NCBI GenBank assembly: GCA_001630475.1
Contig: KV419394.1
Location: 186,001 to 250,000 of the forward strand
Source: Sistotremastrum niveocremeum HHB9708
Taxonomy: Eukaryota; Basidiomycota; Agaricomycetes; Sistotremastrales; Sistotremastraceae
Length of the DNA: 64,000 nucleotides
Reading direction: 5' to 3'
Positions 39,343 to 52,838 of this stretch are shown in pieces (the stretch's first letter is position 1; each line of letters starts with the position of its first letter). Position numbers and translations under genes: made by a program. The notes beneath the pieces were generated by a model. The model was not told the DNA's origin, did no database searches, and saw nothing but the letters and a program-made list of their open reading frames with translations.

Positions 39343-39672
39343 CTATCGTTCCTTTTCCTCTTCGTCTTCGTCCCGGATTTCACTGGAATCGTTGAGGTCC
39401 AGGAGCGACATGGACCTCTCGTGCTGCTCGTACGGGAATATAACTGGTGTCGCCGGAGTAGACTAGATTGGGGAATTAGAAGATCCGCACGAATGCAGAG
39501 CGCGTATTCTTACGGTATCAGTTGCGGCTGCATTGCGGGTGGGCGCGACTTCACAGTAAAACGGTGCGGGGAAAAAGAATGGGTGTCGACGGAAAAGCGA
39601 CTGGACGTGAGGTGGAAATCGTCGAAGAGCGAGGACGAATTCTATTGAAGGGAAAGTCCAACATTTGCCCAT
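39343..39672 (-). CDS. Short protein, paralogue of the gene at 44997
   Basis: ATG 39672; exon 1 39514-39672, a 51-bp intron, exon 2 39343-39462; 92 residues. The N-terminus shares with the gene at 44997 the pattern PSIE-x-VLA-x-RR-x-PP, then Q-x-L-x-RRHP-x-FFPAP. The C-terminus shares SLLDLN and then ends in an acidic tail (SEIRDEDEEEKER). Arg/His/Phe-rich start and acidic end, no signal peptide, no known domain. Function unknown. The matching motifs in two separate genes make it likely that both are real. Confidence 0.62.
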
Positions 39673-42600
39673 TATCAGAACAGAATATTGAGCGAAATGT
39701 ATGTTGGAGGATTGCGAAGGAGCGGAAGAGAGAGTGGATGTCACGCTCAGGGAACGGGGGGAACGGAAGCAAGATATGGAAGTAAAAAGACCCCCTAATT
39801 TATAGCAGCGGTATTAGCTTCCGGATCGGGAGTGACCAGACATCGCGTCGATGGATATGGGCCAAGTACGATATCGGCGCAGTAGGTTATTTGAGAAGAC
39901 CTCGAAAGGCACAACTACACGATTTCCGGAAGAACTCGAACGTGAGAAAGACGGGTTTCGAGGGTGTTTTGATGGCATTGTCATGAGCGTCCCGATTGCC
40001 TTCCAAAGTCGAAACCCGCATCGGGAAGTTGTTCATATCGAGAATTGTGGGATGCCGTCGTCACCTACGAAAGTTGAATCGAGGAGCTTTGATAACACAA
40101 GATGAGTACAGGGTGTCCGAATAATAATATTGACTTGATTACCAGAACGCAACGGTTTGCCTGCGAAATTCGAGTAGTTCCAGCAAGTTTTGAATCGGAT
40201 GCCGTGGCCTTGAATCGAGGTACGGCCGTTATCAATCGACATGATAGAAGCTTCTTGAGAGAAAAAGCCACTGTCGATTTCTTGGACTGTCGATAAAGAG
40301 GACACGGCCGTGCCGACGATCTCAACACTGCCCTGCGATCGATTGGTCCCGAGCCCTGAAGATCTCAACGTCTCTCCCATCGACCATCGACCATCGTTAT
40401 CAACATGGCATATATTTCTTGCGTGTATTTCTGGTGCACTGGGTACATATTTAGTGTCCCGTAGGGTGACTCGACTTCGGCTATTGGGCGCTTACCGCAC
40501 TTTCTTCGTACTCTAACAGAGCTGGTAAACTCGCCAGGATATCCAATGATTTGACTTCAATAAGACCGTCTTTGAACCTCAAGAGTGGAAGCAAGACCTC
40601 TAAATTGCACTTCTTGAATCGTGAGGCCCATGCAAGCTTATGTGCGCCGCAATAAGGTTCCATCAAGACAAACAGGCTGAACAAGACGAGCTCGTCTTCA
40701 ATCAATGGTTCTAAGCAATGAAGACTGCAAGACTCACTTATGCTCTGGGATCCTGACTGACTCTGTTCTGCCCTTGTAACCTCTCGCTGCTTCGGACGGG
40801 GTGGTCAACACCATCTCTTCAATAATCCGGCAGTGTCAAAGTCAGCTATGACCCTGATAAAATGTTACTATATGCACCAAGAAGACATCAAGGAGCATTA
40901 GGACTTACCATTGATGGTCTAAGCTGCCCTATGAAACAGCCTGAAGGCCCCGTGCGCCAGGAAAGGCCAAAATGCCCCATCAAGAATCAAGAAATAATGG
41001 ATTCATCGCGAATGAGCCCACATATCATGGCTATGATCCTTCACGGCCGTACGTGCGTATCAGCCACTGCAAAATGGTGGCCGTAATGCTGCTGGCGTCC
41101 AGAGCAACGGCCCAGAGAACGAAATCGGTGATTGAAATCTGATCCCGTTTTTTTCGCCCGAGTTCCAAGCTCAGCCTCGTCCGACTCATTCGCGCTCTTC
41201 AATCGACAAGCCACGACTACGAAGACGCCTCTCAGACAGAGGGCGATCAACGAAACTATGACCGAAATAATCCGGGAGAAAAGGAGGTGGGGTGGCTTTT
41301 TGCGGAGTGGATGGAGGACATTCAGCCCTACATCAGCTCCTGTAGCCTCAAACCATCTCCTGGCTAACTCGAGCTGGACGACCCAAGAGATATTGCCCTA
41401 TGGATGATCCATCGCCCTTCACTCAGAAATCTCAAGGCTTCAACTCCACCAGACGTAGCCCGCCAACGACCGAGCGCCAGCCTTGCCTACCCTCTTTCCC
41501 AATGCCACGACAACCCAATCTCTATTAAGGACCTGGACCTCGAGCCTCTGGAGAAGTAGAGGAATGGAAAAAAGGCATAGGGGCCCTTCGGGGAATTTTT
41601 TATGGCGTCTCTAAAGCGAGGGCGTATGATACACCCGGAGGGCAAACGGTGGCTACAGGATTGCTGAACTTTCTATCCACCCTCTGAGTCCCTCAAATTT
41701 GGTCAGTCCACCACAGCTTCCCAAAGCTCAGTACCCCTGTCTTGCCCCTCTGTCAAAGGTTTCCATATCGCAGACCATCCGCTTCGCAACTAGCCTCACG
41801 AGCGTCTGCATCACTATCCCCCTCCCCTCGCACTTCATCCTGCCGATTTCAACGGCTTGCGTTCTGCTTTCATCTATGAGAAGCAACCTCACCTACACTT
41901 GCCTCCTGTATCGCCTGCTCGCTTCGCCATTCGAGCCACCTGCATCGACAATGCTCTACTCGATTCAAATTTCTTCCACGTCCATTCTTCCGTGGCGGTT
42001 TCTATCGAGAAAATCCATGCCACTCCCATCCGATGCTCACTCGGACTCCCCACGACCGCCCTGGCTACATCAATCGCAATTGCTAGCGAACTTATCAATC
42101 AACTCGAGCACGCTGACAAAAGCGGAACACATGAGAGGGATATAGAGCTGGTCTCATGCACAGAAAAACCTGACGAATGCTGTATAAACCAGAAACCCCG
42201 TAATTGATATCAATATTGCTCATGAGGCAACGCCCGAGATGCCCGAAAAAGCTCCGACATATAATTCCGCTGCTATAAACGCCACCGAGGCAGCTGCCTT
42301 CGGAATATAATCCGGCACCGGAAATGTCATTCCTCAGAGCTAGTATACACAGTACCCTACGAATGCCACGCCATGATGGGATGCTTATGCCGATTCGTTT
42401 TCTCTACTATAATGGGGATGGGTGTTTTCATATTCGTCGTGGAGGAATGCTATCGAACCGACAAGGTCGCGAACGAAGACATCTACAGACGCTTCTCCAA
42501 ACCTCCTCATGATTCAGTTGTGATAAATACTATCATAAATTCATTTTTGGGCATTCATTGAGTCGTGCCATTGGCATTTCAGAGCTCATCACAAGCTTTT

Positions 42601-42958
42601 CGAGCTGGTCGGACGCAGAGAGTCTGAAAAGCATGGAAGACAGAATACGTGCAGAGATTTCAAGCAGAGAGTGCAACACAGTCAAAGACAGGTAGAAAAG
42701 GCGTGGCATTGAGGAGCGATATATAATCATCCAGGAGTCCGACAACTTGAACGGGCAGAGAGAATGAACAGCTGGATAGACAGATAATACCGGAGCGGAG
42801 GTCAGAGAAAATACGAGATTTTTGTACCAGGATCTGCCGAGAGTACGATCATCAGGAGGCAGGCGACTGAATATAAGGCCAATCCGACCTGAAGTTTCAG
42901 CAGCAGCGTTATGAGTTTCCTTGGGACGGCTTGACGTTTCGTTTCGAGGATTCGAGTA
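39673..42958. other. Gene-poor stretch
   Basis: About 3.3 kb. 39673-40860 has only short frames. 41130-42210 is protein-like in changing frames and is listed separately. 42220-42800 has short frames with hydrophobic patches. No repeats with matching ends, transposase or RNA gene are seen. Confidence 0.35.
41130..42210 (+). pseudogene. Decayed or heavily spliced coding remnant
   Basis: Successive plus-strand segments look coding but in different frames: EVGWLFAEWMEDIQPYI near 41280, then DPRDIALWMIHRPSLRNLK, then VEEWKKGIGALRGIFYGVSK near 41560, then PARFAIRATCIDNALLDSNF near 41920 with an open frame to 42207. GT-AG introns do not connect them convincingly. I read it as a broken gene with several breaks. 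The family is unknown. Confidence 0.3.
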
Positions 42959-43719
42959 CTAGTAGAACGCAATTGATGACGCAGTCTCGAAGAAGAGACT
43001 ACATCCACTTGATTGCAGCCAAGCCACAGAGCTGGGCGAGCGACGAAGACAAACTTTGAATGAAAATCTTGAAAAGAATACAGACGACGTCTTGAAAGAA
43101 GAGATAAAGCGATTTCGTACCTGCAGTCGATCGCAGACGTTTGAATAGTCGACGGGTCAACTCCTGACCACCTTTTGAAGCTCTCCGTGCCACCTCCTCT
43201 GCCACGTCTCCCTACACTTCTGCTCCCCATGTCTTTTTTTGGCGGAGACCTATTCTTGATAGGTTCTGAACCCTGGCCATTGGATGACTGTATCGATATT
43301 GAAGTGAAAGAGCGGAGTGTGGCTGGGCTGCCTTGAGTTAAGGTGGCCCCACGCTTTGAGGCCCCGCTTGGCGAAAATAGTTCTTTCATCTGTGGAAGTA
43401 GCTTTGCTATAACTACCTGTGTGTTCTGCGGGTTGTCGATGTTGTTTGAGGTCGGAAAACCGTAGGGGCGGCCGGTCAATCCGAGGTGAGCGTTCTGGGG
43501 GCTCCACGGACTGAATTTGAGAATTTGCGACATCTCTTGTGAATTGAAGGTCGTTGCTGATTCCGAATTGCAGTCGATAGCGAAGGCGACATCCAAAGGA
43601 AAGGAAAGAGATGCTTTGGGGCAACTGAAGTCAGCCCGGAAGCAAAAAGAAATAAAGTTCGCAATTTACCGGCATTTCCATTCTTGCCGATCGTCCATCG
43701 CCAGCTGCTTCGTCGCCAT
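42959..43719 (-). CDS. Hypothetical basic Ser-rich protein, three exons
   Basis: ATG 43719 (MATKQLAMDDRQEWKCRCP); exon 1 43670-43719, a 45-bp intron, exon 2 43121-43624, a 53-bp intron, exon 3 42959-43067; 220 residues. If the second intron is retained the frame stays open to 42802. The centre has NTQVVIAKLLPQMKELF, then SPSGASKRGATLTQGSPATL, and an Arg/Gly patch (RSVGRRGRGGG) that could bind nucleic acid. No domain is recognised. Confidence 0.52.
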
Positions 43720-44996
43720 CGTCGTCGCCTGGCTACTGATAGCAGGAGGTTGTCCAGGTCATCACGGCCTTCATAAGATACTGTCTTTCGAGTTTTATGG
43801 GACAAGGTTTCGATATTTCAAATTCTGGCTTGAAAATCGCCTGAGACGGTCGATAATGGACCGAGCAGAGCTTCTTGGTGCAGAGCATTCTTCGGGCATG
43901 AATTTGAGGTGCGTCTTGATGTTTTGAGTGGCGATTCTCATCTTCCGAGCAGCATTTCAGTATAGATTCACTTGCAAGAGACCCAAATGCTTGAGGCGAT
44001 ATCCATTATTTTTTCCGTTGGTAGTCTCTCCAGTAGCTGCACCACCAAGGTCTTGGAGTCCCAAAGATCTCGATGGTCAGAAGGCTCATCAGCTCTTCTA
44101 GCATATCGACTTGCTTCTTAGTCCTGTCAACAATGCCCTGCTTGCAGTCGGGTCATGTCTTGCTATCTTCCGCTCTTCCTTCCAGAGTGGTCTTCACGTC
44201 TTGCTGTTTCGTTTCACGCATCATCTGCGTTCACATCCTTTCAAAGTTATATCAGTCAAACGACCTTTGTTATGGTTGAAGGTGAAGACCTGTTGGCGCC
44301 CGTCGGCCCTGAGTCATGCTCGCTCTTTCCCACGGCATCCTGATGGGACCAGATGGTCAATTACTGGTCTGAAGTAAGGAAACGAGGCACGCCCCAGGTT
44401 GTAGCAACTCAGGAATACGAAAGCATCGCCGAAGGGATGGCGTGGCCATGGATACGACTCAGCAAAGTTTACAACCAGCATGGGCTCCGTGTCGTCTGCG
44501 AGGCAAAAAGGTTCCGTCGAACCTGGGGGAGTCAGTTGTTGCCAGTGGACGAAATTCTTCTCGCGAGCTCGTTCAAATGACCTTCGCAAGAACTAGGAGC
44601 AAAAGTTGACACAATCGACCCTAGTTCGGTGCCAGTTGTGGTATCGGTCGGGACCTGGGATGGACCTTTGGAGGTATTCCACTCTGGTGCCGCATGACAG
44701 CATCGCGGATCCTGAGAAGAACGACGAGTTGCGGCCATCAAACCGACCTTCCAAACAGACAACGCCCCTTTCTGCCTATATGTGTTATGTCTTCGATTTC
44801 AGCAATATTCATTTTCTGCATTCATGAAAAATCGGTCCAAAATGAGGGTTGGCCGTATACGCGTATCGTGTTCGGAACTATAAAGTCGGACTCTAGGTAT
44901 GCTTGACCTGCTCTTCTACGTACTTCCATCACCTCCCCTCAATCTGGCCAGCGTCTCCTCTCTTCGCTCATTCATCTCGCTCAAAACTATCCCATC
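43720..44996. other. Intergenic stretch with a coding-like remnant
   Basis: 1.3 kb. 44353-44580 is an open plus-strand frame (EYESIAEGMAWPWIRLSKVY). The same frame past its stop remains protein-like to about 44697 (VPVVVSVGTWDGPLEVFHSG). This suggests a broken gene, family unknown. The last 150 bp are pyrimidine-rich and form the leader of the next gene. Confidence 0.3.
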
Positions 44997-45566
44997 ATGG
45001 GCTCTAGCAAACGGACATTACCTTCCATAGAGCTTGTTCTTGCTACTAGAAGATGGCCGCCCTACATCCAGCTTCTTCTCCGTCGTCATCCTGTATTTTT
45101 TCCGGCGCCTGTCTTCCGAGAGGTTGATTCTACACTGTTTTCGATACTCAACTCAATGCACTGACGCTCTCTTTTTGTCCCATTCGTAGCGCGACTCAGT
45201 GCCTGCTTTGGACAGAGCACAATATCCCGCCGCTCCAGTTCTCAGACCCCAACCTCTCCCCGAAACCGAAGATCTCACCAGCATATCCTTATTGGATTTG
45301 AACGAAACAGTCGATGGCGTCGAGGCCTCAGCTTCTACATCCCCCGAATCCATGGAAGCCGGGGTCGATGACACTCCGACACCTAGTGATAGCGAGAGCC
45401 CGACTACTTCTTCAGCTGACACGCCTGTTCTCGAAGAAGAGGATCCAGGCAAGCGGGAGGTCACTGTGAGACCTATCTTCATCTCATGGTAGATCAAATA
45501 CTGACCTCCCAATAGACTATCGCCTTGAGGATATCCCGCTACGTCGGTGACAACGCTCAGTCCTAG
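44997..45566 (+). CDS. Short protein, paralogue of the gene at 39343
   Basis: ATG 44997; exons 44997-45122, 45190-45465 and 45516-45566; 150 residues in agreeing phase. The first exon encodes PSIELVLATRRWPPYIQ, then RRHPVFFPAPVF, matching the gene at 39343-39672. SISLLDLNE recurs in the middle. The rest is Ser/Thr/Glu/Pro-rich and acidic, so probably disordered, and ends TIALRISRYVGDN. Compared with its paralogue it has an inserted disordered region and an extra last exon. No signal peptide or known domain. Function unknown. Confidence 0.68.
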
Positions 45567-46356: not shown

Positions 46357-47637
46357 TCACCTGAGAGTTTCACTAATCTTGGACATGAGCCAGGAGTTAG
46401 GCCTCATGTAGAGGACCATACATTCTGCCAAGGCTTTGAGTTGAAACAATTGATCGGGTATGGAGGTCCATTTGCCGAAAATCATCCGGTTGTGTGTTTT
46501 GAGGACGCGTTTCAGAAAACGTTTCTCGACTTTGCTCATCTTTACAGCTGGGATACTGTTCACGTATTCAAAGATGGCATCGTTTTCAGCCGCTTTCTGA
46601 AGCTTGAAGGGCGCATCTTCCCATTCTTTGAAGAGCCTTGAATAGAAAGTTCGTAGCCGCTTCACTTCGTGTGGGTTGCGACAATTGGCAAAGCCGTAGG
46701 GAATGAAGAATCGATAGTCGTCTCCGGCGTCGTGCCACGCTATGTAGCCCTTCAGTGACCAAATGGTCGAGGTCCATTGCGAGGGCGTCGAAAGGATCAG
46801 CTCGAATTCGGGAGGGAGGTCGCTCCGGTCTTCTGTCAGACCTTTACAATCCATAAGAGCAATGAGGGATGAGGTCCTGTAAGCTTCGCAGAACTCGTCG
46901 AAAGAAGATCGATGGATGAGATCCTGATATAGGTCGATAAGCCAGCAGTGTCTTGGCTCGTTGAAGACACAGTATCCGAACTCCAACCAGAGAGAACCTT
47001 CTGTATCCAAATTTGGTCCCCCAAGGGAGAGGACCGCGATGTAGAAGAGAAAGACGCGCTGCTTGTGCTTTGGCCAGCTCGCGACTCGGTTCTCCAGCTC
47101 CTTCTGGGTCTTCCCTTCGGCACCTCCGATGATCTTCCAGATCTGCTTATACACGTCCTCCATATAATTAGTCACGGCAGAGTAGTCCGTGAGAGGCTTA
47201 TTGCTGAAGACCTCGGGTCGCTGGATAAGCCAGCGGAAATTTTTACTGGACGCGTCTCTTCCAGACTTTTTGTAAAGCGCGACTATCTCTTCGAAAAGTT
47301 TGCCTTCGCGTTGCCATCTGTCCAGGGTGAGAGTTTTGACGCCGAGGTCTTTTAGAACTTCTTCATACACGGCGCCAAGGGCTTCGTACTCGGGATCCGT
47401 GACGAGCTTGGAAAAGCCGTAATCCTGTAGCGTCTCTTGGCCCATCTTAAGTTGTTTTCTGAAGACCGTCGCGGCGAGGTAGTCTGCGGACGTGACTTTG
47501 CGCCCAGGGTTGTCGCAGTCGACAATGTGGGCGCTCCAATCTTGATTCTGACATTTTTGGCTGCAATACGCTGCTCTCGCGCATCCTGTGCACGTCTTCT
47601 TCGTTGGGGTGGCACACACATCGCAAGTACGCGTCAT
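46357..47637 (-). CDS. MYND-finger protein A
   Basis: Intronless, 426 residues from ATG 47637; an upstream in-frame extension to 47676 lacks an ATG. MYND finger at residues 5-41 with all ligands (C5, C8, C16, C19, C25, C29, H37, C41). The rest is a long helical region typical of Agaricomycete MYND proteins of unknown function, including FDEFCEAYRTSSLIALMD and WSLKGYIAWHDAGDDYRFFI. It is a distant paralogue of the two plus-strand MYND genes here and diverges from the one at 48857. MYND fingers usually bind Pro-rich peptides. It has a C-terminal extension of about 25 residues compared with its relatives. Confidence 0.88.
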   Translation of the reverse strand: MTRTCDVCATPTKKTCTGCARAAYCSQKCQNQDWSAHIVDCDNPGRKVTSADYLAATVFRKQLKMGQETLQDYGFSKLVTDPEYEALGAVYEEVLKDLGVKTLTLDRWQREGKLFEEIVALYKKSGRDASSKNFRWLIQRPEVFSNKPLTDYSAVTNYMEDVYKQIWKIIGGAEGKTQKELENRVASWPKHKQRVFLFYIAVLSLGGPNLDTEGSLWLEFGYCVFNEPRHCWLIDLYQDLIHRSSFDEFCEAYRTSSLIALMDCKGLTEDRSDLPPEFELILSTPSQWTSTIWSLKGYIAWHDAGDDYRFFIPYGFANCRNPHEVKRLRTFYSRLFKEWEDAPFKLQKAAENDAIFEYVNSIPAVKMSKVEKRFLKRVLKTHNRMIFGKWTSIPDQLFQLKALAECMVLYMRPNSWLMSKISETLR

Positions 47638-48856
47638 GACGGACGAAAAAGTGTTAACAGGCTGAAACTGACGCAAACAAGGTAGTTAGTTTTGACTGTT
47701 TTGATGACATCGGTGATGGAAGATAGAACGTGGCTTACCTGCGACTAGGGTGGCTAAGTGATTGGCCAATTGGTGGAGGGGGTGTATCGGCTGAGTACCG
47801 TTCTGGAATATATGTGGCCAATGAAAGATATTGGGGAGGATGAGGATCCGTTGATGTGATGGATGTAAGGTAGGATTAAGTGCAGATTTAAAACGCGCAG
47901 ATCTATAGGATCATGTCGAAAATTAAGGGCGTTGAGCATCGACGTCAATTCCTGCTGGAGATGACGGAAAGACACACTTTGATATATTTTAATACATGTA
48001 GAATTTTTGAAGAGGCCGTAGGTTCCGTCGTTGAATATACAAGAATTTTTGTGACTGTGGTGGTCGTACAGGCGAGACAGCTTCAGCGCTAACGTTCTTG
48101 TCCCGGTTCCCTTGTCTGGCATTTCATGTGGGTCTTTCTCGCACTTCAAAAACTGCAGAACATACGCTTTTCAAATGCTCATCCAGTGTCTAGACTACGC
48201 TGAAGCATAGGAATGTGCACGTCAATACCTCGACCCTACGAAATTTTCACCTTGAGCCACAGGTCTGATTGCCTTCGCCTTGGATGTCTTCATGATTAAG
48301 CGCGTCGTTCAACTATGGCTGGCCTGCTATTCTAAGATAGCCTCTTACTCTTTGACGTCTTCCTGCGCGCTGGACTGAAAACCGCCCCCTTCTCGTCAAA
48401 AGCCATCTTACATGCGTCTCGGGCGCTTAGTTGCTCTTATTACGCTCTATCTTTGATCTTCTCGTCCTATTGAATGGATGGTCTGGGGATGTCTTCATCC
48501 CAATCAGAGCCGGAGGCGAGCCTGCAGGCCAGAAGCAGAGGAGAGGTCAGCTGCAGGGCTTCCCAAGTTCGATCTTTCCCACTCCTGTCGTGATATCGAT
48601 GCTATCGATATCGCACCGTTCCCGCATTTTGGTTTACGTCTCCTTTCAATTCAAGAGATTATATACTACGATCTCCGAACTGCGAGAGTTACTGGCCACT
48701 TGGTGATCGCCGTGCTCATCTGGCTTTCAGTCGTTGGCTTTCTGTATCGAAACTCTTGCGGCTGTTTGAAGGTGACGAGATTTACCTGATCGCAAAGTTT
48801 TATCTCCCTGATTCGAAGTCTCTTTAGCACATCAGAGAAACCGCATCTCACGAAAC
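47638..48856. promoter_or_regulatory. Divergent MYND A/B upstream region
   Basis: A 1.2-kb region between start codons of divergent MYND genes, matched by 50347-51533 in the second copy. It includes short frames that are conserved between the copies only because the DNA is duplicated. A leader intron ending just before 48857 is possible. Confidence 0.45.
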
Positions 48857-50044
48857 ATGGCGCGTACTTGCGAGGTTTGCGGCGATCCAACGCAGAAGGG
48901 CTGCACAGGTTGCACACGAGTTGCCTACTGTAGCTCAGCGTGCCAGAATGAACATTGGCCGCTTCACGTTGTCCAGTGTGACAACCCCGGCCGTCCGATA
49001 ACCACCGGTGATCATTTCGTCGCCTACCACATGGGAGCCGAGCTCCATTCCCAATCGATGATGGACTATGGATTCCTCAGGATTAACGATCCGATGGAAA
49101 TGCCCCTCCTCATCGACATCTATGTCAAACTCATCTTCGATCTCGGCGTGAGAGGTCCCACTCTGCACAAGTGGCGCACCACGGGCACACTTCATGCAGA
49201 GATTGTCGCAAAATTTGAAGCAGCCAAGATTCTCGCTCCCATGGAGTTTCAGTGGCTCGTCCAGAACCCGCAGATCTTTGTGGCCAAAGCTCCCCCAGGT
49301 CGTCCCACGTTCCTCAAGTCGGTGGACAACGAAGACGCCGAGATGCAACGCAGGACATGGGTACGTGTGGGGGGGTCGGCCACGGATTCCACGGCCGACA
49401 TCACTAGGATTCAAAAGTCCTGGTCCAAAGATAGGAAGATCTGCTTCAAGTTCTTCACGGAAGTGCTAGGAACGGGCATTCCGTCAGAGCGTTCCGCGGA
49501 CTCATGTGTCCCCTTCGCCTGTTGCCTCTATTCAGTCAAATTCCCCGAAACGCTGTGCATTCTATATTACACTCTCATCCAACGATGCAGCTTTGACGAA
49601 TTTTGCGAAGCATACACCACGTCATCTCTTATCGCCCTCATGGATCGGAAGGGCCTCTACCAGGAGCGCAGCGTAATGGGCCCCGACTTCGAAACTGTCT
49701 TATCCCAATCACCTCGCAGGATCTCGAGCGTTTGGTATCTGAGGGCGTATGCCCACTGCCAAGACGCGGTCCCCGATTTACGTCACCTCGTTCCCTACGG
49801 TTTCGGCAACACTCAAGATCTCAAAGAGATGGAACGCCTTCGACTCTTTTATTGCAAACTCTTCAAAGCCGAGCTCATTCCGTCCCTCGAGCTCTTGGAG
49901 GCTGCCAACGGCGGCCGACTCTTTGAGCGTATCATGAAGATACCGAATTTGAACGCCAGCAAATCTGACCGACGCTTCTTGAAGCGTGTCATGGATACGA
50001 AGCAGCCCCGCGCGACAGTCCGCGAGACTACTTACAGGAACTAA
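48857..50044 (+). CDS. MYND-finger protein B
   Basis: Intronless, 395 residues. MYND finger at residues 5-41 with full ligands (CEVCGDPTQKGCTGCTRVAY onward), then DYGFLRIND, LGVRGPTLHKWRTTG and FDEFCEAYTTSSLIALMD. It is most similar to the gene at 51534, its partner in the tandem duplication, and more distant from gene A. The last 100 residues differ from that partner at only about three positions, whereas the first 290 differ far more often. Molecular role unknown. Confidence 0.88.
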   Translation: MARTCEVCGDPTQKGCTGCTRVAYCSSACQNEHWPLHVVQCDNPGRPITTGDHFVAYHMGAELHSQSMMDYGFLRINDPMEMPLLIDIYVKLIFDLGVRGPTLHKWRTTGTLHAEIVAKFEAAKILAPMEFQWLVQNPQIFVAKAPPGRPTFLKSVDNEDAEMQRRTWVRVGGSATDSTADITRIQKSWSKDRKICFKFFTEVLGTGIPSERSADSCVPFACCLYSVKFPETLCILYYTLIQRCSFDEFCEAYTTSSLIALMDRKGLYQERSVMGPDFETVLSQSPRRISSVWYLRAYAHCQDAVPDLRHLVPYGFGNTQDLKEMERLRLFYCKLFKAELIPSLELLEAANGGRLFERIMKIPNLNASKSDRRFLKRVMDTKQPRATVRETTYRN

Positions 50045-50157
50045 GAAGCTGCACCCTACAATACATATGCTGATCTCTCTGGATTCTGCATCCTGTATAC
50101 TGTTGAAATATTTAAATCATGCTGAACAATGACATTGATCTTCTTCAAGAAGCCTAC

Positions 50158-50346
50158 TCAGGTCTTGAGAGATACCGTCGCGGCGAGGTAGTCGGGGGAC
50201 GTGACTCCGCGCCCTGGGTTGTCGCAGTCGACGATGTGAGTGCTCCAATCTTGATTCTGACACTTTTGGCTGCAATAAGCTGATCTGGCGCATCCTGTGC
50301 ATGTCTTCTTTGTCGGGGTAGCACAGACATCGCAAATACGCGTCAT
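50158..50346 (-). pseudogene. Truncated MYND-finger copy (A')
   Basis: An open frame of 62 codons from ATG 50346. It carries a complete MYND finger nearly identical to gene A (MTRICDVCATPTKKTCTGC) and the next 20 residues, then leaves homology at about 50172. The last residues (SLKT) come from the 3' flank of gene B read backwards. It is the cut 5' end of a duplicated gene A, so it lacks the whole helical body. It might still express a bare MYND finger. Confidence 0.8.
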
Positions 50347-52838
50347 AGTTAACGTGAAAGTGTTATGAGGCTCAGCAAAATGCATTAAGGCTAGTCAGCT
50401 CACACTGATAGGATAACATTGGCGATGGAACTAGTGTGGATAGGTGATCGACCAATTGGCCAATTGGTCGACAACGATGTAGCAGTTGGAGGGCTGGTCT
50501 GAATAGATGTCGCCAATGAAAGACCAGATCTGCAGATATTGAAGAATATGAGGATCCGTCAGTATGATGCAGATGATGCAGATTTAAGTGCAGATTTAAT
50601 GTTACTAGATCTATGGGATCACGTCGAAAATTGAGAACGTTGAGCAACGACGTCAATTCCGGCAGCATAGGAGGACCGACACACCTTTATATATAGTAAT
50701 AAATGCAGGATTTTTCAGGAGGCCCTAGGCTCTTTCGTTGAATATACAAGATTTTCTTGTCGCAGTGGCAGTGGTACAGATCCAGACGAGACAGCTTCAG
50801 CGCTAACCCTCGTGTCCCGGACCCTTGTCTGGCATTTCATTTTGGGTCTTTCTCGCATTTCGACGCGGTCCCCAAATGCTTGAAAATGCTCTAGAATGTC
50901 TAGAACACGCTGAAGCATATAGCAATGTGCTTTTCACTGCCTCGGCCTTGACGAAATTCTTACCTTGAGCCACGGGTTTGGTTGCCTTCGCCGTGAATGT
51001 CTTCATCTCTAAAACAGGTCATTTAATTATGGCTGGCCTGCCATTCTTAGGCAGTCTTATAATCTTTTCATTTTCACCATCGACGCTGTCCTGCGCGCAG
51101 GACTGCGAATAGCCGCATTCTCATATAAAGCCATCTTCCACGCGTCTCGCCCGCTTACTTGCTCTCATTACGGCCTATGACTGCTCTCGCCATCGTATTG
51201 GGTGAAATGATTGTGGGATCTCTTCATCTCTTTCCAAGCCGGAGCCGAGTCTGGAGGCCAGAAGCAGACGAGAGGTCAGCTGCAGGGCTTCTCAGGTTCA
51301 ATCCTTCCCACCCCCGACATGATATCGATGCTATCGATCTCGCACCCTTCCCTCATTGTCATTCGCACATCCTTTCAAGTCAAGAGGTTATATACCTCGA
51401 TCTGTCCGTGGGCTTTGATCATCGAAACCCTTGCGGCTGTTTGAAGGTAACGAGATTGACTTGATCATAGTGTGTTGTCTCCTAATTCGAAAACCATTTA
51501 GCACATCAGCGACAGTCTTGCATTTCACCATTAATGGCGCGTAGTTGCGAGGTCTGCGGCGCTCCAACGAAGAAGGCCTGCACAGGTTGCACAAGAGTTG
51601 CGTACTGTAGCTCGGCATGCCAAAAAGGACATTGGCCGCTTCATGTTGTGCAGTGCGACAACCCCGGTCGCCCTATAACCACTGGCGATCATTTCGTTGC
51701 TTACGAAATGGGGGCCGAGCTTCATTCCCAATCGATGATGGACTATGGATTCCTCAGGATTAACAATAATATGGAAATACCCCTCCTCGACGAAATCTAT
51801 GTCAAACTCATCAAGGATCTCGGCGTTAGAGGTCCCACTCTGCACAAGTGGCGCACTACAGGCAGACTTCATGCAGAGATTGTCGCAAAGTTTGAGGCAG
51901 CCAAACTCCTCCACCCCGAGCACTTTCAGTGGCTTGTCCAGAACCCGCAGATCTTTGTAGCCAAAGATCCCCCGGGTCGTCCCCCGTTGCTGAAGTCAGC
52001 GGACGACAAACAGGTCCAGTCGCAACGCAGGACATGGATACATATCGGGGGGTCGGCCGCAGATTCCAACGCCGTTATCGAGAGGGCTTTAAAGTCCTGG
52101 TCCAAAGATAAGAAGCATTGCTTCCAATTTTTTTCGGAAGTGTTGGAAACTGGCATTCCCTCACGACGTTCCGCCTCGTGTGTCACCTTTGCCCTTTGCC
52201 TACACTCGGACATATTTCCCGAGGAGCTGTCCATTCTATACTACACTCTCGTCGAACGATGCACCTTTGACGAATTCTGCGAAGCTTATACCGCATCATC
52301 CCTCAGCGCCCTGATGGATCGAAAGGGCCTCTCCCAGGAGCGCAGAGAAATGGGCTCCGATTTTGAAACCATCTTATCCCAATCACCCCGGAGGATCTCG
52401 AGCGTCTGGTATCTGAGGGCGTATGCGCATTGTCAAGACGCGGTCCCCGATCTGCACCACCTCGTTCCCTACGGTTTCGGCAACACTCAAGATGTTAAAG
52501 AGATGGAACGCCTTCGACTCTTCTATTGCAAACTCTTCAAAGCCGAGTTGATTCCATCCCTCGAGCTCTTGGAGGCTGCCAACGGCGGCCGACTCTTTGA
52601 GCGTATCATGAAGATACCGAATTTGAACGCCAGCAAATCTGACCGACGCTTCTTAAAGCGTGTCATGGATACGAAGCAGCCCCGTGCGACAGTCCGCGAG
52701 ACTACTTACGGGAACTAAGAAGCTCTATCCTAGAATACATATGCTGGACTCTCTGGAATCCGCATTGTGTATACTGTTAGAATCATGCTGAACAATGACA
52801 TTGATCTTCTCCAAGAAGCCTAATCAGGTCTTGAGATA
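50173..52838. repeat. Tandem duplication, copy 2
   Basis: The second 2.7 kb unit holds truncated A', its upstream region and gene B' with its 3' flank. The left border is the junction where the gene B flank (AGGTCTTGAGA) runs into gene A coding sequence (ACCGTCGCGGCGAGG). The right border is where the B' flank continues into unique DNA (TACCTAGGGACC). Confidence 0.75.
51534..52718 (+). CDS. MYND-finger protein B'
   Basis: Intronless, 394 residues, tandem copy of the gene at 48857. The MYND ligands at residues 5-41 are all kept. The N-terminal 290 residues have drifted (SSLSALMD for SSLIALMD, and one residue missing near position 215) while the last 100 are almost unchanged. There are no breaks, so both copies are probably functional. 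Confidence 0.87.
   Translation: MARSCEVCGAPTKKACTGCTRVAYCSSACQKGHWPLHVVQCDNPGRPITTGDHFVAYEMGAELHSQSMMDYGFLRINNNMEIPLLDEIYVKLIKDLGVRGPTLHKWRTTGRLHAEIVAKFEAAKLLHPEHFQWLVQNPQIFVAKDPPGRPPLLKSADDKQVQSQRRTWIHIGGSAADSNAVIERALKSWSKDKKHCFQFFSEVLETGIPSRRSASCVTFALCLHSDIFPEELSILYYTLVERCTFDEFCEAYTASSLSALMDRKGLSQERREMGSDFETILSQSPRRISSVWYLRAYAHCQDAVPDLHHLVPYGFGNTQDVKEMERLRLFYCKLFKAELIPSLELLEAANGGRLFERIMKIPNLNASKSDRRFLKRVMDTKQPRATVRETTYGN

What the first reader, a model, noticed from the sequence alone, without database searches (positions are those of the whole stretch)
39343..45566. Two members of an apparently undescribed short protein family 5 kb apart
The spliced genes at 39343-39672 (minus) and 44997-45566 (plus) share an N-terminal pattern PSIE-x-VLA-x-RR-x-PP ... 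RRHP-x-FFPAP and a later SLLDLN motif. The linkers and tails between and after them are unrelated. Conservation of exactly two motifs across diverged copies suggests selection on both. I know no family with this pair of motifs. The basic, aromatic start and acidic end could form a binding pair or a DNA/RNA contact.
Basis: partly seen in the sequence, partly recalled or inferred. Interest (0 to 1): 0.72.

Follow-up and report, generated by a model that had tools for sequence, protein, structure and literature searches.

The report
Nine-member fungal small-protein gene family
Two short look-alike genes in this fungal DNA belong to a nine-gene family of small proteins that matched no catalogued family searched and whose conserved stretches look like docking tags for partner proteins, but what they do is not shown.

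Summary
The genome holds at least nine members: seven on contig C1 between 73 and 231 kb, one each on C10 and C14. Gene models built by hand have phase-0 introns throughout.

Two duplicates show constraint: exon 1 has 8 synonymous versus 1 nonsynonymous change. Pfam, NCBIfam and PDB searches find no relative.

Best reading: a small docking protein with a helical head and a disordered, motif-bearing tail. P-x-L-x-P is the published ligand core of the BS69 MYND finger, and MYND genes are amplified in the same C1 region. That partner is a lead only: proximity to MYND genes is within regional chance. 'Basic start, acidic end' fails in three members. No fungal proteome or RNA-seq was available.

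The parts
39514..39672 (-). gene A exon 1 (block 1: PSIEFVLALRRFPPHVQSLFRRHPFFFPAPFYCE)
   Evidence: matches 8 other places in the genome
39463..39513 (-). gene A intron, 51 bp, GT-AG, phase 0 (predicted)
39343..39462 (-). gene A exon 2: P-A-T-PVIFP, then SLLDLN, acidic end, stop; lacks the C-terminal block
44997..45122 (+). gene B exon 1 (block 1)
   Evidence: two short helices predicted from the single sequence, mean pLDDT 70
45123..45189 (+). gene B intron 1, 67 bp, phase 0 (predicted; weak 5' splice site GTTGAT)
45190..45465 (+). gene B exon 2: P-A-A-PVLRP, SLLDLN, Ser/Pro/acidic linker; predicted mostly without regular structure
45466..45515 (+). gene B intron 2, 50 bp, GT-AG, phase 0 (predicted)
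45516..45566 (+). gene B exon 3: TIALRISRYVGDNAQS, resembles the last exon of the C1:168k member (SLLLFMSRYIGDRQSEDP)
39673..44996 (.). 5.3-kb spacer between the two head-to-head start codons; its three longest ORFs (287, 171, 152 aa) have a codon score near zero, but a 137-aa ORF at 41794-42204 scores in the range of known coding ORFs, so a gene inside is not excluded; TATAWA 132 bp (A) and 118 bp (B) before the ATGs
46360..47685 (-). neighbouring MYND-finger gene, convergent with B, 794 bp away; candidate partner type only

Best explanation
A paralogous family of small intracellular docking (adaptor) proteins. Shown by sequence: nine genes whose modelled introns are all phase 0, a conserved 35-residue head, a P-x-x-P-x-[LI]-x-P motif (8 of 9) and an LDL motif (9 of 9) 15-21 residues apart in a divergent linker, and in six members a short hydrophobic C-terminal block. 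Inferred: the head is a small, mostly basic two-helix element, and the tail is disordered and presents two short linear motifs to partner proteins. Most specific inference, weaker (about 0.2): the proline motif is a ligand for MYND fingers, which this genome carries in many amplified copies, so that the family would recruit or buffer MYND proteins.
For: The same nine exon-1 places were found by all four member queries. Phase-0 introns in every hand-built model, intron 1 lying between block 1 and the proline motif in 9 of 9. P-x-[LI]-x-P in 8 of 9, strict P-x-L-x-P in 7 of 9, and LDL in 9 of 9, while the linkers align poorly. Constraint between C79 and C109: exon 1 has 1 nonsynonymous and 8 synonymous changes (binomial 5.6e-5), block 3, a stretch chosen after looking, has 0 and 7 (1.3e-4). 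TATA boxes at -107 to -132 in 5 of 9 (two of them duplicates) versus 3.7% of random windows; the counting range was set after a first look. Exon 1 of B modelled as helices 9-17 and 22-30; exon 2 of B without regular structure. For MYND: P-x-L-x-P is the ligand core of the BS69 MYND finger, whose Y540, Q546 and W550 contact it (passages of PMC3555993 and PMC4742278); Y, Q and W stand at the same spacing in 7 of 7 MYND fingers checked, all from C1.
Against: No expression, binding or localisation data. Both structure models rest on single sequences with modest confidence (mean pLDDT 70 and 65). P-x-[LI]-x-P appears in 12-44% of shuffles of the tails of 8 of 9 members (0.65% for A), so a single copy is weak evidence and only its conserved place counts. 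C10 lacks the motif. Exon 3 of C79/C109 shows little constraint (3 nonsynonymous, 2 synonymous changes, dN/dS 0.45), and the part of exon 2 with the proline and LDL motifs has only 1 change, so it is uninformative. MYND fingers differ in specificity: RACK7, ETO and DEAF-1 do not bind the P-x-L-x-P ligands of BS69, and BS69 needs Arg560 just after the finger (passages); by my own reading that residue is Asn or Thr in the fingers here. Three of seven C1 members within 1.5 kb of a MYND gene is expected by chance in that MYND-rich region (P 0.18).
Confidence: 0.45

Rival explanations
1. The conserved head does the work (for example binding nucleic acid, a membrane or a larger complex), and the tail motifs are minor or are phosphorylation/kinase-docking sites.
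For: The head is by far the best conserved part (49-100% identity over 35 residues) and the first 45 residues are net basic in 7 of 9. A T-P site lies inside the proline motif in 6 of 9.
Against: Two members have a head of net charge 0. No PDB relative by sequence or fold for the head, a weak test for so short a piece. The T-P at that place is absent in B, C173 and C10, and the proline and LDL motifs stay while the linkers around them diverge.
Confidence: 0.3
2. A decaying or recently made orphan family: paralogues of an ordinary gene spread by local duplication in an unstable region, now without an important function.
For: Seven of nine lie in about 160 kb of C1, two inside a 4.4-kb inverted duplication. 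Retroelement sequence lies at the contig start and near C79. A and C10 lack the C-terminal block as modelled, and the 3' end of C173 could not be modelled. Exon 3 of C79/C109 shows little constraint.
Against: Few nonsynonymous changes in blocks 1 and 3 between C79 and C109. Open frames and usable splice sites in 9 of 9 as far as modelled. TATA boxes in place in 5 of 9.
Confidence: 0.15
3. A and B are unrelated short ORFs and the shared motifs are chance.
For: Short proteins of simple composition; no match in any library searched.
Against: Nine-member family with E-values down to 2.8e-12 between members and shared gene structure.
Confidence: 0.01

Closest known systems
MYND-finger ligands with P-x-L-x-P (E1A, EBNA2, MGA bound by BS69/ZMYND11; PMC3555993 and PMC4742278, passages read)
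   Same: Strict P-x-L-x-P core in 7 of 9 members, in a stretch predicted to be unstructured in B; MYND matches are abundant in the same genome (96), and 7 of 7 fingers checked keep Y, Q and W.
   Different: No sequence relation beyond the five-residue core; binding untested; not all MYND fingers bind this core; the BS69 Arg560 is not matched at the same place.
Clathrin-box proteins (L-hydrophobic-x-hydrophobic-[D/E]; consensus recalled, no call)
   Same: A and B read LLDLN.
   Different: The first Leu is replaced in 7 of 9 and the acidic fifth residue is present only in C14.
Basidiomycete peptide pheromone precursors (short, C-terminal CAAX; recalled)
   Same: Short proteins in several diverged copies on one contig.
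   Different: None of the eight members with a modelled C-terminus ends in CAAX.

Membership tests
any Pfam-A or NCBIfam family | profile match | tested here: not met
   0 families for A and B and for 8 of 8 members scanned (the 9th, C109, left out as near-copy of C79) in Pfam at E up to 1 and NCBIfam, a prokaryote library, at E up to 0.1
any protein with a solved structure | sequence or fold match | tested here: not met
   best E 0.55 with block 1 of five members, none with the eight-member alignment; Foldseek of the 42-residue head model of B: no match at E up to 10. A weak test for so small and modest a model
MYND-finger ligand | P-x-L-x-P core in an accessible stretch | tested here: met
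   strict in 7 of 9, P-x-I-x-P in A, absent in C10; accessibility inferred from one single-sequence model of B exon 2
MYND-finger ligand | direct binding to a MYND finger, lost on mutating Leu/Pro | not testable with these tools
   needs a binding assay
MYND-finger ligand | cognate MYND fingers keep the pocket residues | tested here: inconclusive
   Y, Q, W kept in 7 of 7 fingers checked (all on C1; one search lists 96 matches); the BS69 Arg560 equivalent is not kept by my reading
clathrin-box protein | L-hydrophobic-x-hydrophobic-[D/E] (recalled) | tested here: not met
   first Leu only in A and B, acidic end only in C14
basidiomycete pheromone precursor | C-terminal CAAX (recalled) | tested here: not met
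   0 of 8 modelled C-termini; C173 end unresolved

The most novel reading that the evidence does not exclude
A fungal two-part system: a family of small soluble P-x-L-x-P ligands that expanded together with an array of MYND-finger proteins in the same chromosome region, so that different small proteins pair with different MYND proteins as an adjustable recruitment network.
Probability: 0.13. Interest if true: 0.7.

Novelty: new member of a known kind. Interest (0 to 1): 0.4.

Why it matters
Short, lineage-restricted gene families are easily missed by annotation (general knowledge). This one is unusually clear: nine copies, shared gene structure, signs of constraint, and a motif with a named candidate partner domain. 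MYND matches are numerous here (96). None of the titles and abstracts listed (3 papers; 7 papers) deals with ligands of basidiomycete MYND proteins. If the pairing were real, it would give them a testable ligand.

Tried and rejected
Conserved gene neighbourhood: rejected as evidence for pairing. Members B, C79 and C109 are convergent with a MYND gene 402-794 bp away, but C79 and C109 are one duplicated segment, the MYND gene beside B scores higher against MYND genes at C1:254k and 143k than against the one beside C79, and the closeness is expected by chance in this region (P 0.18).

Pair duplication: A/B and C168/C173 are both head-to-head with 5,324 and 5,214 bp between start codons, but the spacers share no convincing sequence (best blastn E 0.007) and the tree is unresolved (1 of 6 inner branches starred).

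Subtelomere: the first 600 bases of C1 carry a retroelement integrase/chromodomain and no telomere repeat, so this was not supported.

Clathrin box, CAAX pheromone and basic/acidic pair: not met (see membership test). Relatives in viral contigs (14 pattern matches) and genome contigs (44 pattern matches; bacteria and archaea): none confirmed; neither collection is one of fungal genomes, so this says little. Literature (seven searches): nothing on this family was seen in the listings, which is weak evidence because most fungal gene families are not printed as motif strings.

A weak match at C56:850-1032 to B's linker (E 0.31) was left as chance-level. B was typed one Thr short (149 instead of 150 aa); corrected.

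Full report
What is there. The window is C1:186001-250000 of a 34.7-Mb genome in 111 contigs. Short introns and genes such as Cdc73, cytochrome P450 and MYND fingers fit a fungus; I could not test that it is an Agaricomycete. Gene A (minus, 39672-39343) has one predicted 51-bp intron and encodes 92 residues. Gene B (plus, 44997-45566) has predicted introns of 67 and 50 bp and encodes 150 residues. They lie head to head, with 5,324 bp between start codons.

The family. Queries with A, B, the C14 member and the C73 member each found the same nine exon-1 places. They are C1:73k, 79k, 109k, 168k, 173k, 225k (A) and 231k (B), C10:132k and C14:537k. E-values of A against the other eight run from 2.8e-12 to 1.1e-7. 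The only match outside the family was one place on C56 at E 0.31, taken as chance. The search reads exon by exon and scores only the best candidates, so nine is a lower bound.

Anatomy. The models were built by hand, choosing GT-AG pairs that keep the frame and fit the other members; some 5' splice sites are weak (GTTGAT in B, GTTCGC in C168, GTCTGT in C79). In them intron 1 is phase 0 in 9 of 9 and separates the head from the rest; intron 2, where modelled (6 of 9), is also phase 0. The 3' end of C173 is unresolved, and a further intron in C10 is possible. Conserved pieces: (1) head, 35 residues, 49-100% identical between members; (2) P-x-x-P-x-[LI]-x-P in 8 of 9, with C10 keeping only the outer prolines; (3) LDL, 15-21 residues further on, in 9 of 9; (4) a short hydrophobic stretch around intron 2 in B, C168, C14, C73, C79 and C109, followed by SRY[VI]GD in B and C168 and by a different ending with NW[DN]-x-P-x-NP in C73, C79 and C109. 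Invariant columns in the eight-member alignment (C109 left out) include the outer prolines of piece 2 and all of LDL.

Is it coding and constrained? C79 and C109 lie in a 4.4-kb inverted duplication, 88% identical overall. About 1.9 kb over the family gene and its upstream region (C1:78240-80100) differs by about 4% (my sum of the 60-bp bins), while the left flank differs by roughly 20% and the right flank by roughly 15%; this looks like gene conversion. Nei-Gojobori counts: exon 1 dN 0.007, dS 0.228; whole gene dN/dS 0.17; exon 2 from its start through LDL only 1 synonymous change, so uninformative; the linker after it dN/dS 0.42; block 3, 7 synonymous and 0 nonsynonymous changes; exon 3, 2 synonymous and 3 nonsynonymous (dN/dS 0.45). 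Binomial chances are 5.6e-5 for exon 1 and 1.3e-4 for block 3, the latter picked after looking. Introns are 95-96% identical while dS in exon 1 is 0.23, so the tract is a mosaic and the ratios are signs of constraint, not rates. A codon score trained on eight nearby coding ORFs is higher in the modelled frame than in the +1 frame for 9 of 9 members, though slightly below zero for C73 and C79. TATAWA occurs at -107 to -132 in A, B, C79, C109 and C173 (C79 and C109 not independent); C73 has it at -33, C14 only at -476, and C168 and C10 have none within 1.5 kb.

Known or not. No Pfam match for A, B or any of the eight members scanned, none in NCBIfam, none in the PDB by sequence beyond a best E of 0.55, none by fold for the 42-residue head model (a weak test). 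No fungal proteome collection was available, so 'undescribed' remains unproved; the family may well be present, unnamed, in other mushrooms.

How it may work. The head of B is predicted as two short helices (residues 9-17 and 22-30, mean pLDDT 70), and exon 2 of B is predicted almost without regular structure (mean pLDDT 65, pTM 0.15); both are single-sequence models. A small structured head with a motif-bearing disordered tail fits a docking protein. P-x-L-x-P is the core recognised by the BS69 MYND finger in E1A, EBNA2 and MGA, with Y540, Q546 and W550 making contacts to EBNA2 (passages of PMC3555993 and PMC4742278). All seven MYND fingers checked here, all from C1, keep Y, Q and W at the same spacing. 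The genome has 96 MYND matches at E up to 0.01. The MYND protein beside B has 39 matching places, about 37 genes by my count, 16 of them (itself included) on C1:80-265 kb, the stretch that holds or adjoins the seven C1 family genes at 73-231 kb. Against this: the motif is short and easy to find in Pro-rich tails, other MYND fingers do not bind this core and BS69 needs an Arg that is not matched here, and being next to a MYND gene is not above regional chance (P 0.18). I put the MYND reading at about 0.2 and the full co-expanded system at 0.13.

Verdict. A real family, larger and more structured than reported, matching nothing in the libraries searched. Its kind, a lineage-restricted family of small motif-bearing proteins, is familiar; its function is open but now has concrete tests.

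Noticed in passing
G000 C1:77359-81721 versus C1:107199-111569 (L026, L027): 4.4-kb inverted duplication holding a family gene and most of a MYND gene; divergence drops from roughly 15-20% to about 4% over the family gene and its upstream region, as after gene conversion.
   Followed up: partly
window 39673-44996 and G000 C1:168074-173286: Two head-to-head pairs of family genes with almost equal spacers of 5,324 and 5,214 bp that share no convincing sequence; most ORFs inside score as non-coding, but a few (for example window 41794-42204) do not.
   Followed up: partly
window 46360-52715 and G000 C1:80-265 kb: Clustered MYND-finger genes, mostly 400-480 aa; 16 of about 37 relatives in the genome lie in this region. 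One copy at window 50161-50394 is an ORF of only 78 aa, 82-85% identical to the gene at 46360-47685, perhaps a truncated duplicate.
   Followed up: partly
L050 (G000 C1:1-600) and L026:7523-8395: Retroelement sequence: integrase SH3 plus chromodomain at the contig start, copia-type gag near C79.
   Followed up: no
L028:3631-6554 (G000 C1:164131-167054): Two divergent, related ORF sets; the one ORF scanned matches inositol polyphosphate kinase.
   Followed up: no
L025:8556-9104 (G000 C1:75056-75604) and G000 C1:82912-83589 (L026): Related ORFs beside C73 and C79 (42% identity); the first matches aquaporin/MIP. Another sign of local segment duplication.
   Followed up: no
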